Below the pieces are notes generated by a model that saw nothing but the letters and a program-made list of their open reading frames with translations, made no database searches and was not told where the DNA came from. Positions 1 to 33,334 of a stretch of 64,000 nucleotides of DNA are shown piece after piece. Position 1 is the stretch's first letter. Every line of letters starts with the position of its first letter. Both the position numbers and the translations under genes were made by a program. The DNA comes from Gluconobacter potus (lineage in GTDB: Bacteria; Pseudomonadota; Alphaproteobacteria; Acetobacterales; Acetobacteraceae). The stretch lies in contig NZ_JABCQF010000005.1 in the NCBI RefSeq assembly GCF_015244705.1, forward strand, positions 1 through 64,000, read 5' to 3'.

Positions 1-238
1 CAACATCAAAGAAACCAGGCTGCTTCATCTGCCATCATCCCCAATCAACGCAGGAGAGATGGAATCACAGAGGAACCCTCAAATCCAGAAGGTTTTTCGA
101 ACCCTCCAGGTCCGGGCCGGACGGCGGCTTCTGAAAACCCGTTTCTCGGCACAGGCCGTTATCGCCGCCCTCTCCCCTGTCCTGCCAGAGGTCTTTCCAG
201 CGGCCGAATCCGGCCCGCCCGTCCTGAACTGAGACGCC

Positions 239-5961: not shown

Positions 5962-6473
5962 CCCGCTTCATTCCTCTGGCCGCGGCCCTGCTGGCCGCTT
6001 CCGTTTTTGGGAACGCGCATGCTGCCGATCCCACTCCGCCAACAGCCTGGTACTGGCACAACTGGACCGATCATGACGGTGTCAGCCACATGACCCGCTG
6101 CCCGTTCCATGATTACGATCTGAAAACCATGTCCAAACCTGCCGGCCCGCAATGGCAGGATCATGTGCATGAAGGCAACGCGCACATCATTTCCACCGTG
6201 CAACCTGCCCATTGGGATGGAAGCTGGCACCCCGATCCGAAAGTCCAGTGGATCATTCCGCTGAAGGGGTCCTGGTACGTTACGGCCATGGACGGAAAGA
6301 AAGTCGTCATGGGGCCTGGCGACGTCTCTCTTGGCGAGGACCAGATGAGCCGCCGGGACGCAAAGGGACATATCGGTCATTTCGCCGGGAATATCGGCGA
6401 CGGCCCCGTCACACTGATGGTCATCCAGACCGACGAACAGCCGACCGTGGATAAGCCCTGCCGCTTTCATTAA
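5958..6473 (+). CDS. Secreted cupin-domain protein
   Basis: A 171-residue protein with a clear signal peptide (residues 1-22, cleavage after AHA) and a single cupin fold, so it should act in the periplasm. The cupin core runs from about residue 60 (DHVHEGNAHI) to about residue 155, with the hallmark PGD turn in VVMGPGDVSLGED. His and Glu residues around HVHEGN and the later HIGHF could bind a metal. It overlaps the upstream VOC gene by four bases, so the two probably act on related small molecules. Substrate unknown. Confidence 0.75.
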   Translation: MTRFIPLAAALLAASVFGNAHAADPTPPTAWYWHNWTDHDGVSHMTRCPFHDYDLKTMSKPAGPQWQDHVHEGNAHIISTVQPAHWDGSWHPDPKVQWIIPLKGSWYVTAMDGKKVVMGPGDVSLGEDQMSRRDAKGHIGHFAGNIGDGPVTLMVIQTDEQPTVDKPCRFH

Positions 6474-21652: not shown

Positions 21653-22444
21653 TTAGCCACCACCCAGATTGGTCACGGTCTTCATCATGTCGTCCGACGC
21701 GGTGATGACCTTGCTGTTCATCTCATAGGCGCGCTGGGCAGTGATAAGATCGGTGATTTCCGTCACGACATTGACGTTCGAGTTTTCGACGTAACCCTGC
21801 ATGATGCTGCCGTAACCGACAGCTTCAGGATTGCCCATCATGGCGTCGCCCGATGCTGTCGTCTGGGTGAACAGGTTCTGTCCCATCGCAGCCAGACCGT
21901 TCTCATTGGTGAAAATACCAAGCTGAAGCTGCCCGACAAGCGTCGTGTTGTTCTGCCCGGCAATCTGCACACTGACCTGACCGGACTGATCGACGGAGAT
22001 GCTCTGGGCATTGTTGGGGATCGTAATGGTCGGGCTGATGAGATAGCCGTCCGCCGTCACGAGAGAGCCGTTATTGTCCATCGAGAACGTGCCGTCACGG
22101 GTATAGGCAAGCTGCCCGGACGGAAGCTGGACCTGGAAATAGCCTCGTCCCTGTACAGCCAGATCCAGGGAATTGCTGGTCTGTTCGAGACTACCCTGAT
22201 CGTTGATGCGGTAAATCGCGGCCGTCTTCACACCAAGGCCAACCTGAGCACCCGCCGGAATGGTTGTACCCGTATCAGACGAACTGGCGCCGACACGGCG
22301 GATGTTCTGGTAGATCAGATCCTGGAACTCGGCACGGGAGCGTTTATAGCCCGTCGTGCTCATGTTCGCGATGTTGTTGGAAATGGTTTCGACGTTGGTC
22401 TGCTGGGCCTGCATGCCCGTTCCGGCGATGTCGAGTGCGCGCAT
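21653..22444 (-). CDS. flgG: Flagellar distal rod protein FlgG
   Basis: A 263-residue rod protein. The flagellar rod N-terminal motif is complete (GMQAQQTNVETISNNIANMS, TTGYKRSRAEFQDL). The C-terminal motif (GYVENSNVNVVTEITDLITA, then QRAYEMNSKVITASDDMM) forms the coiled-coil core. It builds the distal rod that passes through the P and L rings. Start at 22444, 34 bases after flgF. Confidence 0.96.
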   Translation of the reverse strand: MRALDIAGTGMQAQQTNVETISNNIANMSTTGYKRSRAEFQDLIYQNIRRVGASSSDTGTTIPAGAQVGLGVKTAAIYRINDQGSLEQTSNSLDLAVQGRGYFQVQLPSGQLAYTRDGTFSMDNNGSLVTADGYLISPTITIPNNAQSISVDQSGQVSVQIAGQNNTTLVGQLQLGIFTNENGLAAMGQNLFTQTTASGDAMMGNPEAVGYGSIMQGYVENSNVNVVTEITDLITAQRAYEMNSKVITASDDMMKTVTNLGGG

Positions 22445-22478
22445 GGAGCGTTATCCTTGTCCCGTAAGGGTCGGTAAA

Positions 22479-23219
22479 TCAGGCCGAGACCTGAACGATC
22501 TTGTCGATGGCGTTTTTCTGGCGCGTTGCTTCGGCGTCCACGAACTGCGCCATGAAGTCGAAGTTCCGCTGGATTTCCATCATCTGCGTGACTTCGGTCA
22601 TCATCTGGACGTTGCTGCCTTCCACCATGCCCTGCACGATGTTGGGCCGCTCGACAGCGGTGGTCGGCTGGTCGGAACGCAGCAGCCTGCTGCCTTCGGC
22701 CTGGAGCCTGTTGTTATCCTGCGCCGTCACGATCCCGATCTGGCCCTGCTCGCCCGTTTCAGTCGAGATCACGCCATCTGCGGAAATGGTGATACGATGG
22801 TCGGTCTGGGGCAGTTCGATCGGCTGTCCGTCACGATCCAGCAGGGCATTTCCGTTTTCATCGACAATGGCGCCATCCTGCTGTTCCTCGAAACGACCGG
22901 CCCGTGTCAGACGGACGCCATTGGCAGTGCGCACCTGAAAATAGCCCTCGCCACCCAGTGCGAGATCAAGGGGATTGCCGGTCGACTGCATGTCGCCCTG
23001 CTGGAAGTCCCGATATGTCGCACGGTCCTGCGTATAGGATTCCGTATCCGCACCTTCGGCCTGTTTTGAGCCGTGCTGGTGGGACAGGAAGTCACTGAAG
23101 AGGACATTTTCGCGTTTGTAGCCCACAGTCGAGGCGTTCGACATATTAGCCGCGACCACGGACATGGCGCGCTGCTGGGCATCCATGCGCGAAAGCGCGA
23201 TATAGGTACTGTTCTCCAT
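22479..23219 (-). CDS. flgF: Flagellar proximal rod protein FlgF
   Basis: A 246-residue flagellar rod protein. The N-terminus carries SRMDAQQRAMSVVAANMSNA and STVGYKRENV, and the C-terminus carries the matching QGMVEGSNVQMMTEVTQMME helix. Its position before flgG and its shorter N-terminal motif identify FlgF. First gene of the flgF-flgG-flgA unit; the promoter should lie in the 82-base gap upstream. Confidence 0.93.
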   Translation of the reverse strand: MENSTYIALSRMDAQQRAMSVVAANMSNASTVGYKRENVLFSDFLSHQHGSKQAEGADTESYTQDRATYRDFQQGDMQSTGNPLDLALGGEGYFQVRTANGVRLTRAGRFEEQQDGAIVDENGNALLDRDGQPIELPQTDHRITISADGVISTETGEQGQIGIVTAQDNNRLQAEGSRLLRSDQPTTAVERPNIVQGMVEGSNVQMMTEVTQMMEIQRNFDFMAQFVDAEATRQKNAIDKIVQVSA

Positions 23220-27789: not shown

Positions 27790-28010
27790 GACAGGACGTT
27801 ACGACATCAAACCGGATAACAGGATGGCAGTTTTGCGGGAATTATTTTGTTTCGATTAAGCAACATAAATAAAATCTAATATATTAATTTTTTGCTATTT
27901 TAATAAAACTCAATTAAAATTAAAGTAAAAAACTTACTTTTCTGAAAAATTAACGACTAAAACATCAAAGCCGGAACGGCGCATGCAATAACTTCATCAG
28001 GATTACGCGG
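27790..28010. other. AT-rich intergenic region
   Basis: 221 bases without a gene. About 27840-27960 is mostly A and T with homopolymer runs, similar in character to the leader at 6690-6960. Probably carries the promoter of the following gene; no specific motif recognised. Confidence 0.55.
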
Positions 28011-28739
28011 ATGTACGCTCTACTGTTCTCCGAGCCTTTGGTAAATCGTGCCGAAATGCGTGTCTTTACACGGGAGAAAATCTATTCTTCCGCGCTGGCC
28101 CGGGGCGCGGCCCATGGCGATAAAGAGACTATTCGGGCCATGATGATCGGATGGTGGCCTTTTATTCAGGCTTTTGAGCGCGCTATTGACGTGCGCGTCG
28201 GTCATCTTCCCATCAAGCCGCTCGTCCAGCGTTTCGGTCAGACCCGGATCAAGACGTTCTTTTCAGAAGCCCGCGAAGCTGTCCGGGAAATGAAGGAAGA
28301 GGAAGGCTCGCACGCCATCCTGTGGGCTGATGGCGCAAAGGAATTCGGCCTCGACCTGTTCGGCACCCATTACGACACGCTTCCCACCGTCCAGAAGCTG
28401 ATCGCCAATGCCGACAGTGAAGATCCCGTGATCTTCTTCTCCTGGCTGGCCGCCGTGGAGTACATCGCCGAAGAACTGGCCGCCTATCTCTGCCATGCGC
28501 CGAAATTCACCAGCCTGTTCGCCAAGAAGCACTGGACCTGGGGTCTGGCCCATGACGAGCATGAGCATGACGGACCGTCCCATCTGGAAATCGACGAGGA
28601 TCTGGCCCGCGCCTACTACCCGTCCAACGATCCGGACATCACGCGCGCAGCCCTGACCGCCAACATGCGCGAATGCATTGAAATGTTTGAAAAAGCGAGC
28701 TTCGAGATTTACGCCACGACGCCTGAAATGGCTCATTAA
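28011..28739 (+). CDS. Heme-oxygenase-like putative diiron protein (HDO/UndA-like)
   Basis: A 242-residue all-helical soluble protein with no signal peptide. The spacing of acidic and His residues matches heme-oxygenase-like diiron oxidases such as UndA. Candidate iron ligands are Glu56 in an early helix, Glu98-x2-His101, Glu150 or Glu154 in AAVEYIAEEL, and Asp187-x3-His191 in a His/Asp-rich loop. Known members split fatty acids or modify amino acids with O2; the substrate here is unknown. PqqC in this window shares the overall fold. Start ATG 28011 has AGGA eight bases upstream. The gene stands alone behind an AT-rich region. Assignment is by ligand pattern only. Confidence 0.6.
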   Translation: MYALLFSEPLVNRAEMRVFTREKIYSSALARGAAHGDKETIRAMMIGWWPFIQAFERAIDVRVGHLPIKPLVQRFGQTRIKTFFSEAREAVREMKEEEGSHAILWADGAKEFGLDLFGTHYDTLPTVQKLIANADSEDPVIFFSWLAAVEYIAEELAAYLCHAPKFTSLFAKKHWTWGLAHDEHEHDGPSHLEIDEDLARAYYPSNDPDITRAALTANMRECIEMFEKASFEIYATTPEMAH

Positions 28740-28948
28740 CGAAATCTTAAGCCCTTATCGGCTATCTCCGTGCCCGGTGTGCCATAACCGAAGTGCGGAG
28801 ATGTTGCCATCGACAGATTCGTCCGCCGCAAAGAAAAACTTCATAAATCCCTGTCATCGTGGCACCCTCCTCCTCTATTGGGAAGGTTCATGATGCTCCT
28901 GCCTGTCTCATTGGATCTTGCTGTCTCGTCCCGGTCAGGCGCAGCACA

Positions 28949-31312
28949 ATGACCACCCTGCTGACTCTGATGAAACAGGTGCGGCTTGCCCGGCTTTTCT
29001 CTTTCCGGACAGAAATTCCGGAGGGAGCGGAAGAAGATATCCGACTGTCACGCTGCCGGGTTCTGCGAGGGCTGAACTTCTTTCATTTCGTCCCCCAGAT
29101 CAGCTGCGGCCCTATCGCCGGCCTCTGCCTGATGCGGAACTACCCGACCTACGGCATGATCCTCTGCGGGGCCGTCCTGTTCCTGCTGGTGGTCTACAAT
29201 ATCTGCTTCTATGCGATCCCCACCGAGAAGCTGGTCGATACCAGGCAGTCCTGGATTCTCAAGGGGCTCAATTTCGCATTCGCGCTCTGCTGGATCACGC
29301 TTCCGCCCGTCGTATTTCCCTATGGCGACGCCAATGACAGGGTTCTGGTCGCCGGCATCATGGTTGGCCTGACGGCGACGACCATCACGCTGATGCCCCT
29401 GGCCGGCATGGGGGAGATCATTGCGCTCATGCTGGTCCTGTCCTGCTGCACCGCCCTGTTACAGTCATGGGAAATCGATCACAGCTCGTTCTATTTCTAT
29501 ATCGCCCTCGAACTGGGGATCTACCTGTTCTTTGTCCTGTCCCTGACCATGGCGGTCCGGACCCTGTTCGCGGCGTTTCTGGTCAGCCGGTATTCGCTGG
29601 AGCAGCGGAACAGCATCGTCCAGCTCCTGCTGCGGAATGCGGATGATGATACCGGCGACTGGCTGTGGGAGACCTGCGCGTCCGGGACCCTGCACAATGT
29701 CTCGGCCAGCCTGGCCTCCGCGTTCGGCAACAGCCGGGAATGGCTGGAAAACCGGAACTTCTTTGACATCCTGTCCGATCTGGCGGGCCCGTCAGCTTTC
29801 GACGGCGACGAACGGACAGGCCTGGGCCGTCTGCGACAATGCCTCGACAACCGCATCTTTTTCCGGGACATCGTGGTGTCGGGGACTCTCCATGGCCAGC
29901 AGCGCTTCTGGTCGCTGAGTGGCCGCCCCATTTTCCAGGACCGGAATTTCATCGGATATCGCGGCGTCGGAACGGACGTGACCCAGACGTACTGGGCCCA
30001 GGAAAGCGCCTCTTTCCGGGCAAGGCATGATCTGCTGACCGGTCTGCCCAATCGCGGCGCCTTCCTCGATGACATGGAAACCTATCTCATCGAGGCCGAA
30101 CGCACGGGGGAAGCCTTCGCGCTACTCAATCTCGATCTGGATGGCTTCAAGCAGATCAACGACCGGTATGGCCACTCCGCGGGCGACGAGATGCTCCGGA
30201 AAGTCACGGTCGTGCTGAGCCGGACGCTCAGCGAGCGCCACAGGCTCTACCGGTTTGGCGGCGACGAGTTCATGTTGCTGGAACGTCAGACAACACCAGC
30301 CCAGGCGGCCACTACGGCCACGGGACTGATCCACGCGCTGACGAATGTTCCCATCCGCATCGGGGAAGGCGTGCGCTGCGCAGTCGGGCTCAGTGTGGGA
30401 ATCGTTCTGTCTATCGGCGGTTCGGAACGGGTGGGAAGCCTGCTGGAGGCCAGCGACCTTGCGCTCTACGAAGCCAAGAGTCTGGGCGGCCACACGCACC
30501 GTTTCTACAATCCCGAACTGCGCACCGTGGCCAAGCGCAACCGCGACCTGATCCGTGCGCTCCCCGAGGCACTGGATGAGGGGACGCTGGGCATTGTCTA
30601 CCAGCCTTTCTTCAACACGCAGAGCCAGAAACTCTGTGGATTCGAGGCGCTGATTCGCTGGTCCCATCCCGAATATGGCCGTGTCCCGCCCGAACGGATC
30701 ATCCAGCTCGCGGAAGAAGCCGGGCTGATTCATCGCCTTGGCGTCTACGTCATGGAGAAAGCCTGCGTCTTTGCCCGCGAATGGGATGAGGGGCTGGTGC
30801 TATCGATCAATGTTTCGGTCGGCCAGCTCGAGGCCCCGGCTTTCCTGAAGGATACGTTTCGGGTTCTTGAAAAGACCGGATTCCCGCCCCGCTGCCTTCA
30901 GATCGAGATGACCGAAAACATCTTCATGGAGCCGGATGCCGCAACATTCACCCTGCTGAGCCGCCTTCAGAACGCCGGGATTTCCATCGCGCTCGATGAT
31001 TTCGGCAAGGGGTTCTCGTCGCTCGGATATCTGCGGTTCTTCCCGTTCTCGAAAATCAAGCTGGATGGTCTTTTCGTCAGGGACATGCTGCGCGAATCCC
31101 GTGCGGCTTCCATCGTGCGCGCCGTGGTCGATCTGTCCATCGATCTGGGCGTGGCGGTCACGGCGGAAGGGGTGGAAAGCCAGGAACAGCTGTCCTATCT
31201 CAGGCGCCTCGGCTGCACGGAAGTCCAGGGATATCTGCTGTCACGCCCGCTCTCCCCGGAAGATACCAAGCAGTTCATGGCCACGACCCCGGCCATGATG
31301 GAATCCTCGTAA
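28949..31312 (+). CDS. Membrane-anchored GGDEF-EAL cyclic-di-GMP protein
   Basis: A 787-residue signalling protein. About five transmembrane helices (residues 40-220) are followed by a PAS-like segment (about 230-355, with VSGTLHGQQRFWSLSGRPIF), a GGDEF domain and an EAL domain. GGDEF is intact at residues 437-441. In the EAL domain the motif is intact at 566-568 (FEALIRWSHP), and QIEMTEN, ALDDFGKGFSS and VTAEGVESQ keep the catalytic residues. So both diguanylate cyclase and phosphodiesterase activities are possible. Targets are probably motility or polysaccharide. ATG 28949 is preferred over a GTG at 28859, which would add a non-helical leader. Confidence 0.9.
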   Translation: MTTLLTLMKQVRLARLFSFRTEIPEGAEEDIRLSRCRVLRGLNFFHFVPQISCGPIAGLCLMRNYPTYGMILCGAVLFLLVVYNICFYAIPTEKLVDTRQSWILKGLNFAFALCWITLPPVVFPYGDANDRVLVAGIMVGLTATTITLMPLAGMGEIIALMLVLSCCTALLQSWEIDHSSFYFYIALELGIYLFFVLSLTMAVRTLFAAFLVSRYSLEQRNSIVQLLLRNADDDTGDWLWETCASGTLHNVSASLASAFGNSREWLENRNFFDILSDLAGPSAFDGDERTGLGRLRQCLDNRIFFRDIVVSGTLHGQQRFWSLSGRPIFQDRNFIGYRGVGTDVTQTYWAQESASFRARHDLLTGLPNRGAFLDDMETYLIEAERTGEAFALLNLDLDGFKQINDRYGHSAGDEMLRKVTVVLSRTLSERHRLYRFGGDEFMLLERQTTPAQAATTATGLIHALTNVPIRIGEGVRCAVGLSVGIVLSIGGSERVGSLLEASDLALYEAKSLGGHTHRFYNPELRTVAKRNRDLIRALPEALDEGTLGIVYQPFFNTQSQKLCGFEALIRWSHPEYGRVPPERIIQLAEEAGLIHRLGVYVMEKACVFAREWDEGLVLSINVSVGQLEAPAFLKDTFRVLEKTGFPPRCLQIEMTENIFMEPDAATFTLLSRLQNAGISIALDDFGKGFSSLGYLRFFPFSKIKLDGLFVRDMLRESRAASIVRAVVDLSIDLGVAVTAEGVESQEQLSYLRRLGCTEVQGYLLSRPLSPEDTKQFMATTPAMMESS

Positions 31313-31978: not shown

Positions 31979-32215
31979 CAGGAGCATGCCTTTCCGGAAG
32001 TTAAGGTTTGCGTGACTCTTTGTGTCTTTCTTGGGTCTCGCATTACTGCCATGATACGCAAATACAGACGCCCACCCCCAGCCCCGGATAACCAGCCTGC
32101 CGGATGACAACCCCGACCGCCCTGGTGCAAAAGGTCTGGCGATGATGCGACGCCACCTTCTCTTCGCCGACCGGCTGTTTTCTGCCAGGTCCTTTCCAGA
32201 CAGGCTGTGCCGCGT

Positions 32216-33334
32216 ATGAGCGGAACGGTTACCGTCACGTCTGGAAAGCCGCAGAAGCGCGAACCCCAGCTCTTCGCCCCCTCGGCGCGGACCGCTCCTG
32301 CACGCCCGCAGCATGCCCCCGCCGGAACCCGGGAGCGGCTGAGGGATTACGTTCCGCCATCGGTTCCGGTCCGCCCGGTCCTGACGCCGATGATGCGGCC
32401 GCAGACCATCGTCGAGAACGGCCCGACGGTTCCGTTCATTTTCTCGGCGGGACTGCACGCGGCCGTCCTGGCGTTCCTCCTGATGCAGCATCACGGCATG
32501 CATGGCTCGCCGGCCGGGCAGGAAGAGCCGCAGGTCGAAATGGTCTTCGATACGCCGCCGTCGAAAAGCAGCATGCGTGGACCTCGCGCGCGGGACGAGG
32601 GCGGTGCTCCGCCTCCGCCTTCCGCACAGAGCCCGGAAGAGACACAGGAAAACCAGCAGCAGCCGCAGAAGGAACAGTCCACGCCCACGCCGGCCGTCCC
32701 GACCCCCGAGACGCCGTCCGCGCCTGACGTCCCGCAGGAACCCTCGGCTGAACTGCCCAAGACAGCGCCGACCCCGGCCCCCGTCACGCCGGGCGCGGCC
32801 CCGAGCCAGCGCAGCCAGCAGACATCGCCGCATGCCCATCGCTCGCAGCGTTCCGTCCGCTCCGACCGGAACAACCCGTTCGCGCATCCGATGGATCTGT
32901 CGTTCGGTGAGCAGCCCTCGCCCTATCGCCGCCGCCGTGGGCGTGCGTCCGGTTCCGGCGGCCCGATCGACATGTCCCTCGGCCCGCTCAGCATGAACGG
33001 CGCCATCAACGCGCCGTATCAGACCCGCACGAGCGTCAAGGGCGTCAGCGAGGATTACGGCGGGGAAATCGACCGCTGGATCCGGGCTCACATGTACTAT
33101 CCGGAAGAAGCCGCCCGCGCCGGCGAGGACGGTCCGTCTTCGGTGCATGTCGTGCTGGACCGTTCGGGCCATGTGAAGTCTGTCCGGCTGATGAGCCAGT
33201 CCGGCTCGTATTCGCTGGATGCCGCGACGACCGGCATGTTCCAAGGCGCGCATCTGCCGCCGGTTCCGCCGGACATGAAGGGCGACCATTTCGACATCGA
33301 CGTGACGATCAACTACATCCTGATCCGCCGCTAA
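32216..33334 (+). CDS. TonB-family energy transducer with extended cytoplasmic N-terminus
   Basis: A 372-residue protein with a single transmembrane helix at about residues 73-91. A Pro/Thr/Glu-rich periplasmic spacer (about 110-230) follows, then a C-terminal TonB domain (about 285-372: WIRAHMYYPEEA, VHVVLDRSGHV, SLDAATTGMFQ). It should couple the proton gradient to outer-membrane receptors such as the one at 7 kb. Unlike classical TonB, whose helix starts near residue 10, it has about 70 residues before the helix. No exbB or exbD is adjacent. The start may instead be GTG 32207. Confidence 0.85.
   Translation: MSGTVTVTSGKPQKREPQLFAPSARTAPARPQHAPAGTRERLRDYVPPSVPVRPVLTPMMRPQTIVENGPTVPFIFSAGLHAAVLAFLLMQHHGMHGSPAGQEEPQVEMVFDTPPSKSSMRGPRARDEGGAPPPPSAQSPEETQENQQQPQKEQSTPTPAVPTPETPSAPDVPQEPSAELPKTAPTPAPVTPGAAPSQRSQQTSPHAHRSQRSVRSDRNNPFAHPMDLSFGEQPSPYRRRRGRASGSGGPIDMSLGPLSMNGAINAPYQTRTSVKGVSEDYGGEIDRWIRAHMYYPEEAARAGEDGPSSVHVVLDRSGHVKSVRLMSQSGSYSLDAATTGMFQGAHLPPVPPDMKGDHFDIDVTINYILIRR

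What the first reader, a model, noticed from the sequence alone, without database searches (positions are those of the whole stretch)
28011..28739. Lone UndA-like diiron oxidase candidate
Seen: a helical 242-residue protein with Glu56, Glu98-x2-His101, Glu150/154 and Asp187-x3-His191. Established: heme-oxygenase-like diiron oxidases such as UndA use a Glu, Glu-x2-His, Glu, Asp-x3-His set in that order with similar spacing. Inference: this is an uncharacterised O2-dependent oxidase, possibly of a lipid or amino acid, in an organism whose physiology is incomplete oxidation. It is preceded by an unusual AT-rich promoter region.
Basis: partly seen in the sequence, partly recalled or inferred. Interest (0 to 1): 0.72.

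Follow-up and report, generated by a model that had tools for sequence, protein, structure and literature searches.

The report
Helical protein paired with c-di-GMP enzyme
An unnamed acetic-acid-bacterial protein with the predicted fold of iron-dependent oxidases, but without their standard metal-binding signature, was found next to a membrane enzyme for the signal molecule c-di-GMP in every genome examined that has it, which suggests a new kind of partner or sensor for that signal.

Summary
The ORF at 28011-28739 is real, 242 aa, in a Gluconobacter. Two AlphaFold models (pLDDT 89.6, 86.8) match the heme-oxygenase-like fold (3OQL, UndA, CADD), so the fold call holds. The ligand call is half right: Glu98, His101, Glu150, Glu154 and His191 are invariant in 28 of 28 distinct homologues, but Asp187 is not (18 Asp, 7 His, 3 Glu). 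The helix-3 signature of these oxidases, H-x3-[DE]-x2-H, is in 0 of 28, against 27 of 30 PF14518 and 9 of 9 DUF3050 proteins fetched. In its place are invariant His181, His186, His191 and Asp195. "Lone" is wrong: in 29 of 29 genomes that hold it (395 of the order searched) a membrane GGDEF protein, with EAL in 13 of 14 checked, lies beside it. Eight gene contexts share only these two genes, one with the pair divergent. Best reading: an atypical, probably iron-binding, HO-fold protein that regulates, or makes a signal for, its c-di-GMP partner, as H-NOX proteins do. Pairing is shown; metal, ligand, contact and direction of regulation are inferred. Searches of open PMC papers listed none that pairs this fold with c-di-GMP.

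The parts
28011..28739 (+). HO-fold protein gene, 242 aa, start ATG (MYALL at the N-terminus is invariant), stop TAA
   Evidence: alignments; models; Foldseek
28299..28313 (+). codons 97-101: Glu97, Glu98, Gly, Ser, His101; candidate ligands 1 and 2 on core helix 1
   Evidence: Glu97, Glu98, His101 invariant in 28 of 28; profile alignment to PF14518 puts Glu97/98 beside its conserved Glu and His101 on its His
28458..28472 (+). codons 150-154: Glu150 (candidate ligand 3, core helix 2) and Glu154 one turn on
   Evidence: both Glu invariant in 28 of 28; Glu150 aligns with the PF14518 Glu
28551..28604 (+). codons 181-198: remodelled core-helix-3 region with invariant His181, His186, His191, Asp195 and Leu198; residue 187 varies
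   Evidence: model confidence is low for residues 181-190 (mean pLDDT 64)
28859..31312 (+). Partner gene: 5 hydrophobic segments, weak PAS-like stretch (below cut-off), GGDEF, EAL (817 aa from the first possible start; true start may lie further in)
   Evidence: Pfam GGDEF and EAL; motifs and hydropathy; adjacency in 29 of 29 genomes
27790..28010 (+). Intergenic region, strongly AT-rich, presumed promoter and leader
   Evidence: only a chance-level sigma-70 match; no Rfam match at E up to 1
27903..27928 (+). 26-nt conserved block within the AT-rich region, about 80-108 bp before the start codon
   Evidence: matches the degenerate form in 11 of 11 Gluconobacter sequences aligned; single copy in the genome; best match has 8 or more mismatches upstream in 15 of 15 loci of other genera (13 genomes)

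Best explanation
The gene encodes a soluble heme-oxygenase-fold protein that works together with the membrane GGDEF-EAL protein next door. I think it binds non-heme iron at an atypical site built from Glu97/98, His101, Glu150/154 and His/Asp residues of a remodelled helix 3 (His181, His186, His191, Asp195). The state of that site (iron, O2 or redox level, or a bound small molecule) would be passed to the partner by direct contact, shifting its balance between making and breaking c-di-GMP. Shown: the fold (predicted), residue conservation, absence of the canonical motif, and adjacency to the partner in every genome examined that has the protein. Inferred: metal binding, what is sensed, physical contact, and direction of regulation.
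For: HO-like fold from two models on two sequences. Partner adjacent in 29 of 29 genomes with the protein, of 395 searched, and in 19 of 19 named loci; the two sets overlap. Eleven loci fall into 8 gene contexts that share only these two genes among ORFs of 120 aa or more. In the most distant homologue (50% identity, G190) the pair is divergently oriented yet still adjacent. Of 366 searched genomes without the protein 7 match the partner's membrane part. In the genus the protein is in 16 of 26 genomes; of the other 10, 7 have no match to the partner's membrane part and 3 only a 24-26% match, whereas a flagellar gene about 5 kb away is in 26 of 26. Precedents: H-NOX proteins that regulate partner cyclases (PMC8846402 passages) and a diiron hemerythrin domain that controls a cyclase (PMC9388753 passages).
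Against: No coordinates were available, so clustering of the proposed ligands is untested. The remodelled helix 3 may mean metal binding was lost. Conserved adjacency does not prove contact or co-transcription: the genes are about 90-300 bp apart (to the first possible start), and divergent in one lineage. Outside Gluconobacter the partner's membrane part has diverged so far that 6 adjacent partners score worse (E 4.8e-14 to 3.2e-8) than the best match in a genome without the protein (G396, 9.2e-18), so membership of the partner family is not sharp by that region. The partner's GGDEF motif is altered in L017, L018, L101 (GGDEM, GGDEL) and L020 (GGDQF), and the EAL domain is missing in G190, so the output is not uniform.
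Confidence: 0.5

Rival explanations
1. It is an O2-dependent enzyme of the HDO type that oxidises a small molecule (fatty or amino acid), and the product is the signal read by the partner's membrane or PAS-like domain.
For: Fold neighbours UndA, PolF and BesC are HDOs, and characterised HDOs act mostly on fatty or amino acids (review PMC13108848 section 4). The partner has 5 hydrophobic segments in the window (4-6 in 14 partners checked) and a weak PAS-like stretch that could bind a ligand. FlcD shows that HDOs with an altered helix 3 can still be oxygenases (PMC11363339 passages).
Against: The canonical helix-3 motif is absent in 28 of 28. No neighbour other than the partner recurs across the 8 contexts.
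Confidence: 0.22
2. It is a metal-free HO-fold adaptor or ligand-binding protein, as PqqC is metal-free, that regulates the partner through contact alone.
For: Canonical metal motif lost. Invariant residues extend far beyond any metal site, for example MYALL at the N-terminus and the stretch 188-200. PqqC is among the fold matches of the second model; it is described as having no metal cofactor (PMC11363339 passages).
Against: Four His (101, 181, 186, 191), Asp195 and four Glu (97, 98, 150, 154) that could bind metal are invariant in 28 of 28, more than an adaptor needs.
Confidence: 0.15
3. An oxidase with no functional link to the c-di-GMP protein; the neighbourhood is inherited synteny.
For: All homologues found lie in one family, Acetobacteraceae.
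Against: Eight contexts share nothing but this pair; the pair is divergently oriented in G190; in Gluconobacter the 10 genomes without the protein lack a close partner too, while a neighbouring gene stays.
Confidence: 0.08

Closest known systems
Heme-oxygenase-like dimetal oxidases (HDOs: UndA, CADD, AetD, SznF, FlcD; Pfam PF14518)
   Same: Predicted fold; acid and His at the end of one core helix and a Glu on the next align with PF14518 (hhalign local P 8.7e-5, against 0.32 for the reversed control)
   Different: H-x3-[DE]-x2-H of core helix 3 in 0 of 28 (27 of 30 PF14518 proteins have it); no Pfam or NCBIfam match over cut-off; pairs with a c-di-GMP enzyme
DUF3050 (PF11251), a CADD-like HO-fold family of unknown function (PMC4520260, passages)
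   Same: EEE..SH..L pattern and a His-rich stretch ending in Gly-Pro; C-terminal profile match P 0.0057 (reversed control 0.039), whole-length P 0.02 (reversed control 0.061)
   Different: Both matches are weak against their controls. DUF3050 keeps H-x3-D-x2-H in 9 of 9; the window family does not
FlcD, a mononuclear-iron HDO
   Same: Has lost canonical helix-3 ligands (V278 and R281 replace the last two; PMC11363339 passages)
   Different: FlcD lies in a biosynthetic pathway; the positions altered and the extra invariant His of the window family differ
H-NOX proteins with a partner cyclase (SwH-NOX/SwDGC, Hnox1/Lpg1057) and hemerythrin cyclase Bhr-DGC
   Same: A separate gas sensor protein acting on a DGC or DGC-PDE, or a non-heme iron sensor of c-di-GMP output (PMC8846402, PMC9388753 passages; that H-NOX genes lie beside their cyclases is recalled)
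   Different: Different folds; H-NOX uses heme, the hemerythrin domain is fused to its output; here sensing is not shown

Membership tests
HDO (heme-oxygenase-like dimetal oxidase) | Heme-oxygenase-like helical fold | tested here: met
   Foldseek on two models: 3OQL E 1.8e-4 and 9.4e-4, UndA 6.4e-4 and 1.7e-3, CADD TM-score (by target length) up to 0.69 and 0.68
HDO (heme-oxygenase-like dimetal oxidase) | Core helix 3 motif His-x3-Asp/Glu-x2-His | tested here: not met
   0 of 28 distinct homologues; 27 of 30 PF14518 and 9 of 9 DUF3050 proteins have it
HDO (heme-oxygenase-like dimetal oxidase) | Acid and His on core helix 1 and Glu on core helix 2 | tested here: met
   Glu97, Glu98, His101, Glu150 in 28 of 28, aligned with PF14518 equivalents; by sequence only, geometry untested
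HDO (heme-oxygenase-like dimetal oxidase) | Bound dimetal centre and O2-dependent chemistry | not testable with these tools
   needs purified protein
PF14518 Haem_oxygenas_2 | Score over the curated cut-off | tested here: not met
   not among matches at E up to 1
DUF3050 (PF11251) | Score over the curated cut-off | tested here: not met
   not among matches at E up to 1; no DUF3050 match in the window's genome; profile comparison weak
True heme oxygenase | Conserved proximal His near the N-terminus (criterion recalled) | tested here: not met
   The only His before residue 64, His35, is not conserved
TenA / thiaminase II (PF03070) | Pfam match | tested here: not met
   not among matches at E up to 1, although TenA structures are among the fold neighbours
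Sensor plus c-di-GMP enzyme pair (H-NOX type arrangement) | Dedicated adjacent c-di-GMP enzyme | tested here: met
   29 of 29 genomes
Sensor plus c-di-GMP enzyme pair (H-NOX type arrangement) | Ligand-dependent control of the partner's activity | not testable with these tools
   needs in vitro assay

The most novel reading that the evidence does not exclude
A new class of c-di-GMP sensor: a stand-alone heme-oxygenase-fold protein with a non-heme iron site of new composition (His-rich helix 3 in place of the diiron oxidase motif) that reports oxygen, redox or a metabolite to a membrane GGDEF-EAL partner in acetic acid bacteria.
Probability: 0.35. Interest if true: 0.78.

Novelty: new variant of a known kind. 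Interest (0 to 1): 0.58.

Why it matters
HO-fold non-heme iron proteins characterised so far are described mostly as enzymes of small-molecule biosynthesis (review PMC13108848, section 4); one from Acinetobacter has been tied to desiccation and oxidative stress (PMC13232832, passages). A member locked to a c-di-GMP enzyme would move the fold into signalling, much as hemerythrin is both O2 carrier and sensor. Acetic acid bacteria are strict aerobes that form surface films (recalled), so an oxygen- or redox-tuned c-di-GMP switch would matter for fermentation. It also gives a direct test: delete one gene of an isolated pair and measure c-di-GMP.

Tried and rejected
Rejected: Asp187-x3-His191 as a ligand pair, because Asp187 is not conserved. 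Left undecided: the register of helix 3. Three registers were weighed: His181-x3-Glu/Asp185, where Glu150 to His181 is 31 residues, as I count in DUF3050 (sequences), and where the forced global alignment to PF14518 puts His181 on the first helix-3 His; His191-x3-Asp195-x2-Leu198, which resembles H-x-E-x-D-x2-H; and a DUF3050-based one placing His186 on the last ligand. A position-specific matrix from 27 PF14518 proteins did not discriminate, scoring sites 181 and 191 at -15.8 and -13.7, both below unrelated positions (best -3.8), and profile alignments of the C-terminal part were weak (PF14518 P 0.11; DUF3050 P 0.0057 with reversed control 0.039). Rejected: a link of the pair to the nearby flagellar gene, which is present in 26 of 26 Gluconobacter genomes while the protein is in 16. 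Tried without result: plasmids, PDB by sequence, more distant homologues by profile (class: only the window's own genome of 385; order: the same 29 genomes of 395 strongly, further matches only at E 0.06-0.8), Rfam, sigma-70 and terminator scan (chance level). Pfam PSD2 at E 0.00087 is below its cut-off and treated as chance. Partner-like genes in G396, G141 and G062, which lack the HO-fold protein, were inspected: no homologue within the 6.5-8 kb taken; G111, G004, G013 and G020 were not inspected. The DUF3050 resemblance was a recalled lead that led. Six listed papers with 'oxygenase-like' and 'diguanylate cyclase': two opened by passage concern dioxygenase-like signal-synthesis proteins, the rest seen as listing only.

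Full report
What is there. The ORF at 28011-28739 on the + strand encodes 242 aa. The window lies in a Gluconobacter genome: 15 of the 19 named homologous loci are Gluconobacter (13 at 95-99% protein identity, G. morbifer 89%, G. wancherniae 84%), and the window's gene order is kept in 4 of the 5 Gluconobacter loci compared, all but G. wancherniae. Homologues occur in 29 of 395 genomes searched in the order, 6 of 84 genera, all in the same family, and only in the window's own genome among 385 drawn from the class, few of which belong to the family. A profile search of 395 genomes of the order found the same 29 strongly and added only weak matches at E 0.06 or worse. No Pfam or NCBIfam family is over its cut-off, and there is no convincing PDB relative by sequence (none; best E 0.12, unrelated chains).

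Fold. AlphaFold2 with 12 sequences gave mean pLDDT 89.6 and pTM 0.88; a second run headed by the Endobacter homologue (60% identical, same 12 sequences) gave 86.8 and 0.84 with nearly the same helices. Foldseek against the PDB places both in the heme-oxygenase-like fold. The best matches are 3OQL (E 1.8e-4 and 9.4e-4), UndA (6.4e-4 and 1.7e-3) and CADD (TM-scores by target length up to 0.69 and 0.68), then TenA and true heme oxygenases. Only 4 and 1 chains are at E up to 0.001, so the fold is recognised but distant.

Ligands. The 28 distinct homologues compared come from the window, 14 named Gluconobacter loci (one of the 15 is identical to another) and 13 loci of other genera. Glu56, Glu93, Glu97, Glu98, His101, Glu150, Glu154, His181, His186, His191, Asp195 and Leu198 are invariant, while residue 187 is Asp in 18, His in 7 and Glu in 3. 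The published ligand order of HDOs is an acid and a His on core helix 1, a Glu on helix 2 and His-x3-acid-x2-His on helix 3; in AetD it is D76, H79, E140, H172, E176, H179 (PMC10654658, passages). The first half is present here: a profile alignment to PF14518 (local P 8.7e-5; reversed control 0.32) matches Glu97/98, His101 and Glu150. The helix-3 motif is absent in 28 of 28, against 27 of 30 PF14518 and 9 of 9 DUF3050 proteins fetched. Instead, residues 181-198 hold three invariant His and an invariant Asp around a Gly-Pro break, and residues 181-190 have low model confidence. Helix 3 is also the mobile, sometimes disordered helix of characterised HDOs (PMC13108848 section 4). FlcD shows that a changed helix 3 can go with a single iron (PMC11363339, passages). 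Which of the invariant residues bind metal, if any, could not be decided without coordinates.

The partner. The next gene (28859-31312, +) encodes GGDEF and EAL domains behind 5 hydrophobic segments (4-6 in 14 partners checked); GGDEF and EAL motifs are intact in the window. It is adjacent in 19 of 19 named loci. A search of 395 genomes of the order with the partner's membrane part (window 28979-29668, E up to 1e-6) matched all 29 genomes that have the HO-fold protein, and in each the best match is the neighbouring gene; it matched 7 of the other 366. Against a sharp reading, the best of those seven (G396, 9.2e-18) scores better than the adjacent partners of six genomes (4.8e-14 to 3.2e-8). 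I inspected three of the seven places and found no HO-fold gene there. Eleven loci fall into eight gene contexts (L002 with L014; L016; L017 with L018 and L101; L019; L020; L097; L098; L100), and among ORFs of 120 aa or more within about 4-6 kb the only genes shared between contexts are these two (in L020 the HO-fold ORF was displaced by an antisense ORF in that script, but it lies at 6001). In the most distant homologue (L048/L097, genome G190) the two genes are divergent and the partner ends after GGDEF. In Gluconobacter, 16 of 26 genomes have the HO-fold protein; of the 10 without, 7 have no match to the partner's membrane part and 3 only a 24-26% match, like second copies of 22-26% seen in five genomes that also have the true partner. 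A flagellar gene about 5 kb away is present in 26 of 26. Adjacency therefore outlasts rearrangement and inversion, and in the genus the two are lost or gained together. The genomes are related, so these counts are not independent events; the eight contexts are the better measure.

Partner variation. The GGDEF motif reads GGDEM or GGDEL in L017, L018 and L101 (Acetobacter or its genus code), but is intact in L100, which bears the same genus code; it reads GGDQF in Endobacter (L020). The EAL motif (EVL in L016) is present in 13 of 14 partners checked. The module's output may therefore differ between lineages.

Upstream. The 220-bp intergenic region is AT-rich. AT-richness recurs upstream in most other genera: GC of the 300 bp before the start is 0.22-0.33 in 12 of 15 loci outside Gluconobacter (10 of 13 genomes, since two loci repeat others) and 0.46-0.51 in the other three. 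The 26-nt block is a Gluconobacter feature, single copy in the genome. It looks like a dedicated regulatory element; its regulator is unknown.

Interpretation. The simplest account is a two-part module: a soluble HO-fold protein with an atypical, probably iron-binding, site, and a membrane c-di-GMP enzyme that it regulates. This resembles H-NOX proteins with their partner cyclases and the hemerythrin-cyclase fusion (PMC8846402 and PMC9388753, passages). In the census of c-di-GMP sensors PMC8846402 the single 'heme oxygenase' hit is a reference title; I read passages, not the whole census. Four PMC searches touching this fold with c-di-GMP or signalling terms (0 papers; 2; 2; 6) listed no such pair by title or abstract; two of them opened by passage were off topic. 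Subscription papers are not held. Rivals are an HDO enzyme that makes the partner's ligand, a metal-free adaptor, and passive synteny, in that order.

Novelty. As a protein it fails the motif test for HDOs, so I do not file it as an HDO; it has the fold and half the ligand set. As an arrangement (accessory protein plus c-di-GMP enzyme) it is a known kind with a new accessory fold.

Noticed in passing
G000:C9:2950-3477 (locus L050), outside the window: The same genome encodes a canonical PF14518 protein (open frame of 398 codons, E 1.5e-40) with the motif HVEVDALH, a true HDO candidate.
   Followed up: partly
window 27903-27928: A 26-nt AT-rich block upstream of the gene is kept across the Gluconobacter sequences aligned, occurs once in the genome and was not found upstream in other genera; possible site of an unknown regulator.
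   Followed up: partly
L017, L018, L101 and L020, partner genes: The partner's GGDEF motif is altered (GGDEM, GGDEL, GGDQF) while EAL is kept; in L097 EAL is missing altogether.
   Followed up: partly
window 21653-23219 (-): Two flagellar rod or hook proteins (FlgE/F/G family) lie about 5 kb upstream in Gluconobacter; no window gene other than the partner is near the protein in L016-L020.
   Followed up: yes
window 32207-33334 (+): A TonB C-terminal domain protein.
   Followed up: no
G396 and G141 (loci L095, L096): Small-genome relatives have a partner-like membrane GGDEF protein without the HO-fold gene, beside genes with repeated TQEGPEGIRYDF-like segments.
   Followed up: no
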